Origin: Limnospira fusiformis SAG 85.79
GTDB taxonomy: Bacteria > Cyanobacteriota > Cyanobacteriia > Cyanobacteriales > Microcoleaceae
Assembly: GCF_012516315.1 (NCBI RefSeq)
Contig: NZ_CP051185.1
Location: forward strand, 5,027,363-5,091,362
Direction: 5' to 3'
Length of the DNA stretch: 64,000 nt
Shown piece after piece: positions 37,399-43,647 of this stretch. How positions within the stretch are numbered: position 1 is the first letter of the stretch; every line of letters starts with the position of its first letter. The position numbers and the translations under genes were made by a program. The notes beneath the pieces were generated by a model. The model was not told where the DNA came from. It saw only the letters and a program-made list of their open reading frames with translations, and ran no database searches.

Positions 37399-39158
37399 TT
37401 AGCGCGCCTGGGACAATTTTAAAATATTCGCCTCAATATCTGATGCAGGTAGGGGCCTAGAAAATAGATAGCCCTGACCAAAGGAGCTACTAGCTCCTGA
37501 AGATACTCTAACACCTCCCTTGTTTCGATACCTTCGGCGATCGCACCATTACCCAATTGATTACTCAATGCTACAATCGTTTGCACTACCTGATGATTCC
37601 GACTTCCTGGCTGCATTTGGTTCACAAAAGATCTATCTATCTTTAAAGTGTCAATGGGGAAACGGTGCAAGTAGCCTAAAGAAGAGTAACCTGTACCAAA
37701 ATCATCCAAACTGATCCCAATTTTTCGCGTTCGCGTAGCGTGTGCGTAGCACGTATCGCAATTTTGATGTTAGGGCGATCGCCATTTCCGGATTATCCAT
37801 TAATGCACTTTCGGTAATCTCCAACTTGATGGCCTGTGGGTTCACTCCCGTATTAGCCAGAACCCGATCTATATCTACCAACAGCGTAGAACTGGCAAAC
37901 TGACGCACCGACATATTAACACTCATCATGCAAAGAATGGATAACCCTGTTGATGCCACTTGTTTAGTTGTTCACAGGCTTGTTGTAGCACCAATAAACC
38001 CACCTGCACCACTAAACCCGTTTCCTCCATACAGGGGATAAACTCTCCCGGTGACACTAAACCTCGCTGGGGGTGTTGCCAACGCACTAATGCTTCAAAA
38101 CCCACCACCTTCTCTGTAGCCAGCCTCACAATAGGTTGGTAATAAGTGATCAACTCTTGTTGTGCGATCGCCCTTTGTAAATCCGTTTCCAGAGTCAGCC
38201 GTTTAAGTGTAGCCGCCGTCATTTCTCGGTTAAAGATTTGATGGCAACCTTTTCCCCGCCCTTTGGCTTTGTACATTGCCGTATCCGCTGCTTGTAATAG
38301 GGCTTCAGCATTAGAGTTTACTTCCGTATCTAGGGGAATTCCCATACAAACAGACATAAAAATATCGCAATTTTCTACCTAAAAAGCCTGGATAAATGAC
38401 CCCATTACTCCATTAATCCAATCTGTTAATTCTCCGGTTGCGGAAATGTTTTTCAGCCCAAAGCAAAACTCGTACTCTCCCACTCTACATAGTAGATCTC
38501 CGGGGCGCAGATGTTTTTTAAGACGTTCTGCGATCGCTCTCAGTAGTTGATTTCCCACCTGGTAACCAAAAGCACCATTAACTAGTTTGAATTGGTCACA
38601 GTCGAGATAGGCGATCGCATAATTTTCCCCGCTGCTGTCAACGTAGCTATCCGATAGTTTGTGTAATAACTGCGCTCGACTTGGTAGCTGCGTTAGCGTA
38701 TCTTCATCTATTAGCCTTTGTAACTGAGCCGTGCGTTCTTCAACCATCAGTTCCAATTTCGTGTTAAAATCGGCTAAAAGTTGATATTGTTGCTTAATTC
38801 TGAGCATAGAGCGAATCCGTGCCAGCAATTCTAAGCCATTAACAGGTTTCGCAATAAAGTCATCTGCTCCCGCCCCCAGACATTCAGCTAGACTCTCTGT
38901 AGAAGATAATGCCGTCACCATAATAATCGGTGTTCCTTTCCATTCACCCATAGCTTTAATACGGCGACAAACCTCAATACCGTCCATAACTGGCATCATT
39001 ACATCCAGTAAAATTAGATCCGGTTTGATTACATTAATTACTGAAAGTGCATCTTGTCCACTATAAGCATAGTGTAAATGATAGTTTTCATCAATCAAAC
39101 AAGTTTCAACTACATCAAAATTATCTGGATCATCATCCACAATTAAAATTGAGAACAT
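37399..39158 (-). pseudogene. Receiver-GGDEF-EAL response regulator, heavily decayed
   Basis: The start is intact: a receiver with 'LILLDVMMPVMDG' (Asp near 52), then a GGDEF domain whose active loop reads 'RVGEYEF' rather than G-G-D-E-F. At 38378-38380 an in-frame TAG stops it, and the GGDEF end ('[20 protein letters not shown]') and EAL start ('[13 protein letters not shown]') continue in the same frame. A frameshift near 37940, a 41-base insertion at 37725-37765 and another frameshift near 37500 then break the EAL domain ('DDFGTGYSSLGYLHRF', 'FGQGYLFSRPLP'). The ancestral product would have handled c-di-GMP. Its receiver is a paralogue of the one at 39280. Confidence 0.85.
37725..37765. 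repeat. 41-base small dispersed repeat inserted in the EAL region
   Basis: The insert reads CGCGTTCGCGTAGCGTGTGC and continues with GTAGCACGTATCG. It is flanked by 7-base direct copies of CAATTTT (37718-37724 and 37759-37765). This GCGTAGC-type composition is typical of small dispersed mobile repeats in cyanobacteria. It splits the conserved EAL segment just before I-G-I-S-L-D-D-F-G-T-G-Y. Confidence 0.6.
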
Positions 39159-39279
39159 CGGTAGATTTTCCTTAGCAATTCAACAACTATCTATGGTTCC
39201 ACGGCATCTAGTTTCACTATCTTAATATAAATATGATACGTTGTAACGTGACAATAGGGTTATTTGTATTATTTAATAG

Positions 39280-40419
39280 CTAATGAACAATCGGTAAAGT
39301 AATATATATCATCGTTTCTTGATTGTATATGCTATTAATTTGTATGGTTCCTCCCACCAATTCAACAATTTTATCCACGATTTTTAAACCAACACCCAGG
39401 CCTTGTTGCTCATAGCTTTTGCGTTCAAACTGCATAAAAGCACCGATTTGATTGATTTGCTCTTCCGTCATCCCACGCCCCAAATCATGAATCCATAGCC
39501 CTAGTTTTTCCCCTTCAGTGATAATCTGAGAGCGAATCGAGATGGGTTTCCCCGGCTTGGAGAATTTCAAAGCGTTGTCAATCAACTCATTTAAAATAAT
39601 CGACAAATACCGCTCTGATATCGCCACGGTAGCCGGTTCTATATCCAACTTAAAATCATCATAGCGTTGGCTATCCGGTGCATATTTTTTGCAGATAGGT
39701 TCCACAAAATACAAAGATAACATTGTAGACCCGGGCGGAACTTCTTTTTCCTCGCTACTTATCAGTTCCAATTCCAAATAAATTAGGAATCTTTTGACTA
39801 AATTTTCCAGGCGACAGGCTGATTGATACGCCAACCTTAACATCTCCACTGTTTCCGACATCTCCACATCTTCTATATCCTTCAGATCCTCCATCACCAG
39901 GGCGAGCATTCCTAAAACACCATTTAGAGGGGTATTTAGTTCGTGGGAGAGACTAGAGGCTAAATTACCCCGCAGTCTGACCAGAGTTTTTTCGAGTACT
40001 TGAATTGTATTCTTCTGCACATTAGACAAATGAGAAATTTGGTCATATTGTTGCTTAATTCTCAGCATTGAATGGACACGAGACCGTAATTCTAAAGCAT
40101 TAACGGGTTTCCCGATAAAGTCATCCGCTCCCGCTGCGATACATTTAGCTAAACTTTCTTTAGAAGATAATGCCGTCACCATAATAATAGGTGTAGATTG
40201 CCATAGTGGCATAGCTTTAATGCGGCGACAAACTTCAATCCCATCAATAGCTGGCATCATCACATCCAGCAAAATCAAATCTGGCTGGATTAATTTGAGT
40301 GCGGAAATTCCCTCCTGTCCACTAGCAGCATAATGTAGCTGATAGTCTTGATTACTCAAAAAGGTTTCAATCACATCAAAGTTGTCAGGTTCATCATCAA
40401 TAACTAAAATAGATAACAT
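39280..40419 (-). CDS. Receiver-histidine kinase (hybrid regulator)
   Basis: The 379-residue protein has a receiver first (D-D near 8-9, 'LILLDVMMPAIDG' with phospho-Asp52, Lys near 104). A short linker, a HisKA domain with 'SLSHELNTPLNGVLG' (His159) and a HATPase domain (N-box 'ILNELIDNALKFS', G2 'QGLGVGLKIV') follow. There is no sensor domain and no membrane span, so it works downstream of another kinase or a direct partner. Its receiver is very like that of the pseudogene at 38379-39158, indicating a duplication. A conserved arrangement 'DEPDNFDVIE' is shared by both. Confidence 0.88.
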   Translation of the reverse strand: MLSILVIDDEPDNFDVIETFLSNQDYQLHYAASGQEGISALKLIQPDLILLDVMMPAIDGIEVCRRIKAMPLWQSTPIIMVTALSSKESLAKCIAAGADDFIGKPVNALELRSRVHSMLRIKQQYDQISHLSNVQKNTIQVLEKTLVRLRGNLASSLSHELNTPLNGVLGMLALVMEDLKDIEDVEMSETVEMLRLAYQSACRLENLVKRFLIYLELELISSEEKEVPPGSTMLSLYFVEPICKKYAPDSQRYDDFKLDIEPATVAISERYLSIILNELIDNALKFSKPGKPISIRSQIITEGEKLGLWIHDLGRGMTEEQINQIGAFMQFERKSYEQQGLGVGLKIVDKIVELVGGTIQINSIYNQETMIYITLPIVH

Positions 40420-40706
40420 TTGTCGATAGTCCTTAGCAAGTCTAAAATCCCAAATTTGATGACTTTTCTTAGTTCATTTAGTCATGAGTTTATAAATATT
40501 GCTCAATACTCATTTACTCATCAGTTACTCTACCCGGCAGTATATCTATAACCTGGTAATTACCGGAAAACTCTGGAAAATTTATACAAATAGCCATCTC
40601 TCCTAAAAACAGGTTTCAAATCTATTGGCTTGACTGAAAACTGAGTTTGGTCAGGTTTGGTTAAAACAAAACTGCCGCGACTCGACGGGGTTATTCTACC
40701 AATTTC
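40420..40706. other. Intergenic region downstream of iscB
   Basis: No ORF or recognised RNA. This is where the downstream end of the IscB element should lie, but without a second copy or an empty site the end cannot be placed. Confidence 0.35.
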
Positions 40707-41849
40707 TTATGTCTTATGCTTGGCTATATCCCCGGTAAGCCATCCCTTAATTGGTTTTAATGGGTTATGGCGAATCGGAAGCCTCTTGTTAGGAGCCGCT
40801 TTTTGACGGCCACCACGCCCAAAACAAGTCATTAGTAGTGGCTGATGAGTTTTGATTTTCAACCGGGTCGGGGTGCTTTTTCCCACACAATCAGCGTCAT
40901 CTAGCCAATGGGTTTTCGGTAGTCCTTGAACCGTCCGATTATATTTTGTTAAACCTCCAGTGCCAATTTCAATGGGTAATCCAGTTAGCTTCAGGCTGTT
41001 AAACAATGCCCATCGGGTAGAGTTGACGGCCGCCGCATTTTTCAGGGGGGCCTTGGCCTGAACTAGCAACCGCTTCAAGATTTCGGGTTTTTTTTCCAGA
41101 AACTGCTCGACTGCCTGAGAACCTTTTTTCTGATGGCATTTATGGCAAGCAATAGCCAGATTGCTAACTCGGTCGGAACCACCCTGGCTTTTTGGCTGAA
41201 TGTGTTCGATTTCTAAAGGGATATTTTGGCCACCACAGTAGGCACACTGGTGTTGCCATTTCGTCAAGAGATATTCTCTCAACTCGTATCCAAACAAAAC
41301 CCCTTGCTGGTATTCAACTCCAGATATTTCCGGGTTGAGCAGTTTTTGGGTGTCAAATCGTACTAACTCCATTGATATGTCCGTTATCGGGCATGAGGAA
41401 ATCAGTCGATTGACCGAGGTCAAGGTGGTTTCAACTCGATGTTTGAGGCTGGGAGCCAACCATCCATATGCGCGCTTTCTGTTATTGAATCTGGCTTGAC
41501 GGTAGCGAGTTTTTCGGTAACGACGGTGGCGACGAACCACGCGACGTGCAGTTAACTTGGCTCGGATTCTATCTCCTCTATGAGCCAATTCAGCCCCCCA
41601 GATAACTGTGTCCCGACTCTGATTAACTAAGGCAATACCCGTCACTGATGCCCCTGGATCTAACTTAATCCGACTAGGTTCATTGACCGGGTTCTCAACG
41701 GTTTTCTTGAGGATAATTGTAAATGGATAAGTCCTAAACACTGCGGCTAAACCCTGCTTCAAAAGCTTTCTGGCTCTGGCCGGATGAGTGGGACTTAACG
41801 GTTGCCCCAGTGTGTCAACCACAAAAACGTAATTTTGGTAATTTGGCAT
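40707..41849 (-). CDS. iscB: IscB, RNA-guided nuclease (RuvC-HNH, Cas9 ancestor family)
   Basis: The 380-residue protein has the full IscB layout. The N-terminal PLMP-type domain is 'QPLSPTHPARARKLLKQG'. RuvC-I is 'IKLDPGASVTGIAL' (Asp64). An arginine-rich bridge helix runs about 98-127. RuvC-II is 'DISMELVRF' (Glu161). The HNH domain has C-A-Y-C, 'LEIEHIQPKSQGG' (His216), Asn230 and C-H-K-C-H (about 202-245). RuvC-III is 'PKTHWLDDADCVG' (His314, Asp317/318). All catalytic residues are visible. IscB uses an omega-RNA, encoded just upstream, to cut both strands of a matched target. It is small for the family but complete. An omega-RNA candidate lies directly upstream and a group II intron beyond that. 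Confidence 0.9.
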   Translation of the reverse strand: MPNYQNYVFVVDTLGQPLSPTHPARARKLLKQGLAAVFRTYPFTIILKKTVENPVNEPSRIKLDPGASVTGIALVNQSRDTVIWGAELAHRGDRIRAKLTARRVVRRHRRYRKTRYRQARFNNRKRAYGWLAPSLKHRVETTLTSVNRLISSCPITDISMELVRFDTQKLLNPEISGVEYQQGVLFGYELREYLLTKWQHQCAYCGGQNIPLEIEHIQPKSQGGSDRVSNLAIACHKCHQKKGSQAVEQFLEKKPEILKRLLVQAKAPLKNAAAVNSTRWALFNSLKLTGLPIEIGTGGLTKYNRTVQGLPKTHWLDDADCVGKSTPTRLKIKTHQPLLMTCFGRGGRQKAAPNKRLPIRHNPLKPIKGWLTGDIAKHKT

Positions 41850-41855
41850 TTAAGC

Positions 41856-42110
41856 TATCTTCCAGATGGGGTAATGTTTGCCTCGGTCATGTTAAAGGGG
41901 CTTTTTACGTCTAGCTCACTCGAGCTTACAAATCCACTCATCTCGTTCCTTAAAGATAGACGACAGAGCCACAGGCTGGCGCTCACCTGTGGGTGTCATA
42001 ACCCCCTTAACGTAGGTCTAATCCTGGACCTGCATCTTGCAGACTCTGTGAGGAGTAATTTCCGGCAGGAGCCAGAAATTACCGGATTTTATGCAAGAGT
42101 CTGGTTTCAC
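41856..42110 (-). ncRNA. IscB omega-RNA / HEARO RNA candidate
   Basis: On the minus strand this stretch leads into the iscB start and can fold extensively. CAGACTCT (42103-42096) pairs with AGAGTCTG (42047-42040). Inside that, GTAATTTC pairs with GAAATTAC (42082-42075 with 42062-42055). Further on, CCACAGG pairs with CCTGTGG (41992-41986 with 41975-41969) around a TGAGCGCCA-like loop. HEARO (HNH endonuclease-associated RNA and ORF) elements have their structured RNA upstream of the nuclease gene, and the guide comes from the flank at its 5' end. The exact ends are estimates. The element's upstream flank here reads GTGA near 42110. Confidence 0.7.
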
Positions 42111-42201
42111 GATCGCTTAATCACCCCCCAGGAATCCCCGACTATATCCTGGCAAACCATTAGGGGTCGAGAATGGAGTCGCCTCCATTCCCTCCCATTC
42201 A

Positions 42202-42235
42202 GAACCGTACATGAGACTTTCACCTCATACGGCTC
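42202..42235 (-). ncRNA. Group II intron domain V
   Basis: On the minus strand a 34-base hairpin starts GAGCCGTATGAGGTGAAAG and returns with CTCATGTACGGTTC. This is the characteristic catalytic domain V of bacterial group II introns, with its GAAA loop and bulge. Confidence 0.88.
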
Positions 42236-42255
42236 CTAGTCTGACTGCTCCATTG

Positions 42256-42873
42256 TTAAGGAACAGCTCTGGCATTGTCAAGTGCCGTTTGATCATCGCG
42301 GGTGTGGCGGTGTAGTAGTTGAAGGTTTTTGTATTCATCCTTTCCGCCTTGGCTTCGAGGTACAATGTGGTCTACTTCAACTATATCTGTTGGTGCGAAA
42401 TACAATCCACACCATTTACACTTGCCTTTTTGCTTTTTGAGTAGTTTTGCTACCCTGTTAGGCGTGTCGATTGCTTGTCCTTTTCTGGTTGCCCAGTAAG
42501 TCCAGTTTCCGTCGTAGGGTGTTGCATCGGGGCGTATTGGGGTGTGTCTGACCAATGGAGTCCAGTTATGTTTCCATAGTTGGAATCCATCTTTAGTTTG
42601 GAATAACCAAGATTCATGCCTTTCTTTCCCATTACTAAGTCTAACCGTTCCATGTCTGAAATAGTTTGTTAGCTTTTCGTGGTTTGCCTTTCCGCATCTT
42701 GATACTGTCCATGCCCGTAACATTAGCCAGGTTATATGGTCTAGCTTAACGAAGGTCTCTGATGAGACGACCCCTGAATAGTAATTTGACCATCCCCGAA
42801 TAATTGGGTTTAGTTTGCTTATCCGGGCTGATTGAGGTGCTGTTTTAAGTTGTTTTATTACACCTTTAATCAC
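42256..42873 (-). pseudogene. Group II intron-encoded protein, C-terminal remnant (maturase X and HNH)
   Basis: The 205-residue remnant begins inside the maturase (domain X) region ('QLKTAPQSARISKLNPIIRG', 'WSNYYSGVVSSETF'). It ends with an HNH endonuclease: C-K-W-C, 'VEVDHIVPRSQGGKD' and 'LLHRH'. The reverse transcriptase fingers and palm with Y-A-D-D are missing, so it is an internal deletion product. The short ORF at 43092-43346 lies in the intron's RNA domains and is not coding. Confidence 0.82.
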
Positions 42874-43647
42874 TTCTTATATGGGCATTCCATCTTTAGA
42901 TTTGTCCTCAGAACCGGGGTACTTTTAAAGGTCTATGTAGGTAGTGCAACAAGACTCCTACTTTTCCCCTTACTCTTTTAAGCGCAGCGTATCAACCTAT
43001 TTCGCTACTTAATTAGTTCTGATGGTTCAAGCCGGACATTCGGTCTCCCTAATCATGGATGGTTGGCAGTGGTCGCATCTGGTAGTAGGTTCTACTTCAC
43101 GCCTTCCGTTCCCCGCTTCAATCTGACGGGGTGTGATTCCTGAAACTGGGGGTGGCTATCGCCGTTACTCTTTCCCACAATCGCCCAAGTGGTTTTAATC
43201 CTCCGTGTTATATAGTTGAGTATTGCGATTTTCTTTGTGGAATTAACCTTGAGTTCCCTGCCTTGCTTTCGCTTTGGGACATATAAACAGTTATAGGGAT
43301 GGTCAGGTGTGCTATCCTTATATTCAAACAAGGGGTTTAAATCCACTCCAGGCAGTTATTTCGGGCATTGCAGCCCTATTTGATGCCTGAACGTCTCGCA
43401 CTGTTACCATAATTATAACCTTTAGATGGTAGCTAACTAAAGATTTTCCTGAGAAATTCGCCGATCGCTTTTCAGCCCTAGGGTGGTCAAGTTCACCTAC
43501 CTAATAGTAAATCCTAGGTTAGACGTTGGACGTGGGGAATAGCCAACATCAGGGTCTTCCGCTCGCTTTGTGAGACGACATAGATCTACAGATTTTCCGG
43601 ACAACTACTTCCACCCAGTAGGGTGGCCCTGATCCTGATGATAATGC

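What the first reader, a model, noticed from the sequence alone, without database searches (positions are those of the whole stretch)
40707..42110. Intact IscB with a structured upstream RNA: a complete OMEGA-type locus
The IscB protein has every RuvC and HNH catalytic residue in place, and the 250 bases upstream fold into nested perfect stems matching the expected place and style of HEARO/omega-RNA. The guide would be the sequence flanking the 5' end of the RNA, near 42105-42125. IscB is short (380 residues) yet complete, which makes it a good comparison point for Cas9 ancestry. HEARO is a known class; the specific guide and target here are not described.
Basis: partly seen in the sequence, partly recalled or inferred. 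Interest (0 to 1): 0.65.

Follow-up and report, generated by a model that had tools for sequence, protein, structure and literature searches.

The report
Decaying IscB with its guide RNA
A spirulina-type cyanobacterium carries a real relative of the Cas9 ancestor IscB next to its guide RNA, but the gene stops early and lacks most of the part that recognises DNA targets, so it looks like a decaying copy of a known mobile element rather than a complete system.

Summary
The RNA is real: Rfam HEARO (RF02033) matches 42044-41871 (-) at 91.4 bits, cut-off 83. The protein is an IscB. "Short yet complete" is wrong. The 380-aa frame ends at an in-frame TAA, and 48 more codons of recognisable IscB C-terminus follow. 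The orthologue at the same site in Arthrospira sp. PCC 9108 reads 425 aa, a paralogue there 429 aa, a Hormoscilla relative 421 aa. The missing part is most of a C-terminal beta domain that in OgeuIscB contacts the TAM. The PCC 9108 orthologue has itself lost the RuvC-II glutamate (E161K). No copy of this subfamily found in the window's genome is full length. Empty sites of two relatives in PCC 9108 place the element at 42099-40541, the guide at 42115-42100 and a CTG target motif at 40540-40538. The same genome holds 50 HEARO matches, 31 IscB-less HEARO elements, and 8 uninterrupted IscBs of another subfamily, 5 of them with Gln for the HNH histidine. Verdict: an ordinary, decaying member of a known class; the genome-wide HEARO expansion is the better lead.

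The parts
40541..42099 (-). IscB/HEARO mobile element (1559 bp, left end CTCTTGCAT, right end GATATA; ends uncertain by about 2 bases because of a CT overlap)
   Evidence: blastn homology limits against six other genomic copies and the empty sites of relatives L073 and L074 in the sister species
41871..42099 (-). HEARO / omega-RNA scaffold (Rfam match 41871-42044; the homologous 5' hairpin domain extends to 42099)
   Evidence: RF02033, 91.4 bits, gathering 83; family homology; fold z -3.54
42100..42115 (-). predicted 16-nt guide (left flank of the element)
   Evidence: inferred from the element boundary; guide length of 16-17 nt taken from OgeuIscB (PMC9640706, passages); guide+CTG has no other match with 2 or fewer mismatches in the two genomes of the genus
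40538..40540 (-). CTG, right-flank motif that belongs to the host site, not to the element
   Evidence: CTG lies between the flanks in the sister-species empty sites of L073 and L074
40707..41849 (-). iscB, 380-aa frame, C-terminally truncated
40563..40706 (-). 48 in-frame codons after the stop: remainder of the C-terminal beta domain
   Evidence: aligned part in full-length relatives
42159..43401 (-). group II intron remnant, 1243 nt (5' end GTGCGAG, 3' end CCTAAT, both placed by eye)
   Evidence: RF00029 hit 42237-42173, 60 bits; both halves homologous to other genomic introns; sequence
42256..42873 (-). 3' part of the intron's maturase gene (GIIM + HNH); no reverse transcriptase domain found
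   Evidence: Pfam GIIM 2e-17, HNH 9.3e-10; the other intron ORF (43092-43346) has no Pfam match
42100..42158 (.). 59-nt segment between intron 3' end and element; contains the guide; 56 of 56 compared bases (42103-42158) identical in the sister species

Best explanation
This is an ISC-type (IS200/IS605-like, TnpA-less) mobile element: an omega-RNA scaffold followed by iscB, inserted between a host-derived 16-nt guide and a CTG motif. While intact, the RNA would have taken its guide from the left flank and led IscB to cut the uninterrupted allele, favouring retention or spread of the element. In this genome the iscB gene now ends at a premature stop that removes most of the C-terminal TAM-interacting domain, so dsDNA targeting by this protein is probably lost. 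The RNA could at most be used by a full-length IscB in trans. Shown here: the RNA family match, the truncation, the element boundaries, empty sites of relatives, and a different change in the sister species. Inferred: past nuclease function and its loss.
For: HEARO match. In-frame stop with a recognisable tail. Of 46 relatives' loci put through a script, 22 were read on the right strand: 20 have frames of 421-432 aa, one (L133) runs into its contig end at 403 aa, one (L042) has its own early stop. The sister-species orthologue is 425 aa but has E161K, at the position of OgeuIscB E193. Other copies of this subfamily in the window's genome: L073 same stop, L075 frameshift, L074 internal deletion, L076, L077 and L080 fragments. 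An AlphaFold model of the 429-aa paralogue (mean pLDDT 64; 77-83 over residues 371-410, 53 over 411-420) has strands 375-378, 382-388, 394-397, 403-406 and 411-415; the stop at codon 381 removes the last four. In OgeuIscB the TAM contacts G461 and R462 and the backbone contact Y469 lie in the TI domain; G461P and Y469A abolish cleavage (PMC9640706, passages). Empty sites of L073 and L074 in PCC 9108 show precise insertion before CTG.
Against: Over 380 codons the window copy and its orthologue show dN/dS 0.33 (15.8 synonymous, 17.2 non-synonymous changes), so the coding region was under constraint for much of its history; gene conversion between copies may have carried that signal in. The 48-codon tail has no further stop, so the truncation may be young. 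The omega-RNA still passes the Rfam cut-off. Two copies with the same stop exist and one sits at a site empty in the sister species, so the stop did not prevent spread or retention. The C-terminal domain was not matched directly to a solved IscB domain. No activity was measured.
Confidence: 0.82

Rival explanations
1. Complete, working OMEGA locus with a naturally compact IscB.
For: All five mapped catalytic residues present and a good HEARO match.
Against: IscB-like C-terminal sequence lies untranslated after the stop; the orthologue, the paralogue and the Hormoscilla relatives continue for 45 to 49 residues past this point; most of the C-terminal domain is lost.
Confidence: 0.07
2. The truncated IscB works without TAM recognition, on single-stranded DNA or RNA, like the engineered TID-less R-IscB.
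For: R-IscB, made by deleting the TID, targets ssDNA and ssRNA (PMC12991159, passages). Two genomic copies (window and L073) share the same stop; between them dN/dS is 0.33 (27.8 synonymous, 31.2 non-synonymous changes). L073 sits at a site that is empty in the sister species.
Against: The window copy is a mosaic; in the tract around the stop it is closest to L073 (4/120 differences against 9/120 to the orthologue) but in others it is closest to the orthologue, so the stop may have moved by gene conversion. R-IscB was engineered. Nothing shows expression.
Confidence: 0.06
3. The stop is read through and full-length protein is made at low level.
For: The frame stays open for 48 codons after the stop.
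Against: An open tail is also expected of a recent stop. I ran no search for a recoding signal.
Confidence: 0.03

Closest known systems
IscB-omega-RNA (OMEGA) systems, e.g. OgeuIscB (PDB 7XHT, 7UTN)
   Same: RuvC and HNH order and mapped catalytic residues, HEARO RNA directly 5' of the gene, predicted guide at the RNA's 5' end.
   Different: C-terminal TAM-interacting domain truncated by a stop; one extra codon in RuvC-III.
HEARO RNA, Rfam RF02033
   Same: Match over the gathering score, model positions 1-211 of 211.
   Different: The 5' hairpin domain is divergent: 52 model columns are bridged by 12 bases.
HEARO RNAs annotated in Limnospira indica PCC 8005 (PMC8400943)
   Same: Same group of organisms; [quoted passage not shown]
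   Different: The word IscB does not occur in its main text; guides and element ends are not discussed in the passages and section part I saw.
R-IscB, engineered TID-less IscB (PMC12991159)
   Same: Loss of the TAM-interacting domain.
   Different: Engineered deletion with tested ssRNA/ssDNA targeting; here a natural stop of unknown effect.

Membership tests
HEARO RNA (RF02033) | covariance-model score at or above gathering (83 bits) | tested here: met
   91.4 bits, 42044-41871 (-)
IscB | RRXRR/RuvC plus inserted HNH, similarity to solved IscB chains | tested here: met
   Pfam; TbaIscB 2.7e-47, OgeuIscB 2e-27; the model of the 429-aa paralogue aligns to IscB 8csz at Z 16.3 (rmsd 11.9, 300 aligned) and 8ctl at Z 16.0 (rmsd 5.0, 223 aligned)
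IscB | RuvC and HNH catalytic residues | tested here: met
   D64, E161, H314, D317, H216 present; RuvC-III has one extra codon, effect unknown
IscB | complete C-terminal TAM-interacting domain | tested here: not met
   stop at codon 381; relatives 421-432 aa; four of five C-terminal strands of the model lie after it
Functional OMEGA system | omega-RNA-guided dsDNA cleavage next to a TAM | not testable with these tools
   needs a cleavage assay
Functional OMEGA system | left flank is the guide and the uninterrupted allele is the target | tested here: inconclusive
   no empty site for the window's own element in either genome of the genus; relatives L073 and L074 have empty sites in PCC 9108, which shows insertion, not targeting
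IS200/IS605 transposon | own TnpA (Y1 transposase) inside the element | tested here: not met
   8 Y1_Tnp matches in the genome, none inside the window
Group II intron (upstream feature) | domain V/VI, GUGYG 5' end and an intact intron-encoded RT | tested here: not met
   D5/D6 present, 5' end GTGCG present, no RT domain in the two ORFs scanned; so a remnant

The most novel reading that the evidence does not exclude
The stop shared by two copies marks a natural, selected TID-less IscB that acts without a TAM on single-stranded nucleic acid, or a truncated IscB that competes for the many omega-RNAs of this genome.
Probability: 0.05. Interest if true: 0.65.

Novelty: new member of a known kind. 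Interest (0 to 1): 0.22.

Why it matters
It corrects a tempting misreading: a 380-aa IscB that looks like a minimal Cas9 ancestor is a truncated gene. It also points to a genus in which occupied and empty sites of HEARO elements can be compared base by base, which fixes element ends, guides and target motifs from sequence alone.

Tried and rejected
Group II intron as functional partner of the omega-RNA: 2 of 50 HEARO hits have a same-strand intron domain V within 300 bp upstream (0.19 expected by uniform random placement, P 0.021; within 2 kb, 4 against 1.2, P 0.06; using the 150 intron hits that one search scored out of 499 candidates). The spacings differ (129 and 166 bp) and the genome is full of introns, so I treat it as coincidence or shared insertion preference.

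Target of the window's guide elsewhere: guide+CTG with up to 3 mismatches gave the locus itself in both species (1 mismatch each, because the element follows) and two 3-mismatch places in the window's genome; the backward control gave 0 there and 1 in PCC 9108. The 16-base guide alone has one 3-mismatch place in the window (39207-39222; 0.44 matches expected). No convincing target.

Empty site for the window's own element: none, because both genomes of the genus carry it. The site of the 429-aa paralogue L095 is rearranged in the window's genome (a different sequence follows 62664), so it gives no clean empty site.

Pseudogene test by dN/dS: 0.29 to 0.36 in the six of seven pairs that had synonymous changes, so not neutral. 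But the element differs at 54 of 1565 positions between species, while 42100-43401 plus 39800-40540 differ at 14, and window tracts match different copies. Gene conversion makes the ratio hard to read.

Structure comparison: rows for IscB entries end at model residue 344-357; only the top row, YnpsCas9 9k31 (Z 17.0, rmsd 15.5), reaches 413. So the C-terminal domain was not matched to a solved IscB domain; profile alignments also end near 348.

Literature: Altae-Tran 2021 and Kapitonov 2016 are not held; Weinberg 2009 was not looked up. What I say of them is recalled. Eight searches were run. In the rows shown (20 of 38, 20 of 4,649, all rows in the others) I saw no title or abstract start that describes IscB in Limnospira or Arthrospira.

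Full report
What is there. On the minus strand, read 5' to 3', the locus holds a group II intron remnant (43401-42159), a 59-base segment (42158-42100), an element of about 1559 bases (42099-40541) with a HEARO RNA and iscB, then CTG and the next gene, a response-regulator-like ORF by eye. Rfam HEARO matches 42044-41871 at 91.4 bits with E 2.8e-17 for the 64-kb window. Pfam finds RRXRR and HNH in the 380-aa ORF. A PDB sequence search gives TbaIscB, HfmIscB and OgeuIscB among the relatives.

The protein is truncated. Read in frame past its TAA (40709-40707), the sequence continues for 48 codons with IscB-like C-terminal sequence. I put 46 relatives' loci through a script. For 24 of them it read the wrong strand and those rows were dropped. 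Of the 22 read correctly, 20 have frames of 421-432 aa, L133 runs into its contig end at 403 aa, and L042 has an early stop of its own. The two Hormoscilla copies, 80% identical, have no stop at this position. In Arthrospira sp. PCC 9108, the only other genome of the genus held, the orthologue at the same site is 425 aa and a paralogue about 21 kb away is 429 aa. The orthologue has lysine in place of the RuvC-II glutamate (residue 161), which maps to OgeuIscB E193. So the two species' copies at this site carry different, probably disabling, changes.

Other copies in the window's genome. L073 (93% identical protein) has the same stop; L075 is frameshifted; L074 has an internal deletion; L076, L077 and L080 are fragments. 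None is full length.

Catalytic residues. D64, E161, H216, H314 and D317 are in place. The window lineage differs from Hormoscilla by His for Asn at HNH residue 239 and by an extra codon giving HWLDDADCVG. OgeuIscB also has His at the position of residue 239. Both changes are in the 429-aa paralogue too, so they do not mark the window copy as dead. The effect of the extra codon is not known.

What the stop removes. An AlphaFold model of the 429-aa paralogue (mean pLDDT 64.1, pTM 0.56) has five C-terminal strands, four of them after residue 380. In OgeuIscB the C-terminal TI domain inserts a hairpin into the TAM duplex; G461P and Y469A abolish cleavage (PMC9640706, passages only). I infer loss of dsDNA targeting. 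The correspondence of the C-terminal domain rests on its position and on the family alignment, because profile and structure alignments to solved IscBs stop near residue 350.

Ends, guide and target motif. Homology to other copies starts between 42105 and 42099 and ends between 40545 and 40537. I joined 45-base flanks of 25 elements (22 of the 31 IscB-less ones described below, plus L073, L074, L075) and searched PCC 9108. Of 25, 20 have an uninterrupted site there, L075 is occupied by the orthologous element, and four (L006, L021, L025, L029) gave no spanning match. In the empty sites of L073 and L074, relatives of the window copy, CTG stands between the flanks. In the 18 empty sites of the IscB-less elements, GTGA stands at the insertion point in 15 and a one-base variant in three (L012 GTGC, L010 TTGA, L020 GTAA). 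Of the 15, L001, L007, L014, L015 and L022 have diverged or imperfectly aligned flanks next to the site. Hence the element ends at GATATA (40541), CTG belongs to the host, and the predicted 16-nt guide is 42115-42100. GTGA fits the NNRR TAM of OgeuIscB. The window's CTGC does not fit the fourth position, but the TAM of this family is untested.

History. Intron, 59-base segment and element are shared by both species. The intron differs by 11 mismatches in 1244 aligned columns, the segment at 0 of 56, the element at 54 of 1565. The excess inside the element, and tracts that match different paralogues, point to gene conversion between copies. Around the stop the window copy is closest to L073 (4/120 against 9/120 for the orthologue), so the stop may have been copied from an L073-like element or the reverse. 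Which of intron and element came first cannot be told.

Genome context. The genome (6.42 Mb, one contig) has 50 HEARO matches, 47 over the cut-off. I sort them as follows: 31 IscB-less elements of 375-405 bp (measured with the GTGA) that start GTCAGC and end TTTTAC before GTGA or a variant; 9 iscB-bearing elements of another subfamily (HEARO loci L003-L005, L016, L018, L019, L064-L066), 8 with a 423-aa frame and one broken, all 9 ending GGTTTAC before GTGA; 6 of the window's subfamily (window, L073-L077); and 4 others (L028, L072, L078, L079). Joined flanks of the 9 iscB-bearing elements gave a spanning match in PCC 9108 for 7; for two (iscB loci L034 and L038) there was only partial or repetitive matching. 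Of the 8 full frames, 3 keep all five catalytic residues and 5 have Gln where the HNH histidine is expected; two PCC 9108 members have His, as have nearly all family relatives in which a script found the motif (one odd extra match in L142). Eight Y1 transposase matches elsewhere could mobilise the elements. This resembles the stand-alone omega-RNAs of Ktedonobacter (recalled from Altae-Tran 2021, not read). In Limnospira indica PCC 8005, HEARO RNAs are annotated and were set aside as intron remnants (PMC8400943, passages and part 1 of 2 of section 16).

Conclusion. A true HEARO/IscB element, but most likely a decaying one. Low interest by itself. The surrounding genome is a good natural system for testing omega-RNA use in trans.

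Noticed in passing
G000 iscB loci L036, L037, L038, L039, L040 (423-aa frames): Five of the 8 uninterrupted IscBs of the other subfamily have Gln in place of the HNH catalytic His (VEQIQPR) with the mapped RuvC residues kept; they fall into both sequence clusters of the family and four of the five have a spanning empty-site match in PCC 9108. They would be expected to nick rather than cut, which is untested.
   Followed up: partly
whole genome G000, e.g. L001, L002, L006-L015, L061-L063: 31 IscB-less HEARO elements (375-405 bp) with uniform ends and different flanks, next to GTGA-type motifs, beside iscB-bearing elements with the same left end: potentially dozens of different guides served in trans.
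   Followed up: partly
window 42159-43401: Group II intron remnant without a detectable reverse transcriptase domain directly upstream of the guide; at least 150 intron domain V hits in the genome.
   Followed up: partly
L068 (G000:C1:2336409-2336658): An IscB-less HEARO element lies directly before sequence that encodes the last 63 residues of an IscB (49% identity to the 423-aa family, E 6.5e-13); no match to the rest of IscB within 1500 bases on the other side.
   Followed up: partly
window 62664 onward: Synteny with Arthrospira sp. PCC 9108 breaks here: PCC 9108 has the 429-aa IscB paralogue about 30 bases further on, the window has a sequence also seen at the right end of fragment L080.
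   Followed up: partly
window 38784-39181 and 40045-40442: A 398-bp stretch of two neighbouring response-regulator-like ORFs (named by eye) is 78% identical, a local duplication.
   Followed up: no
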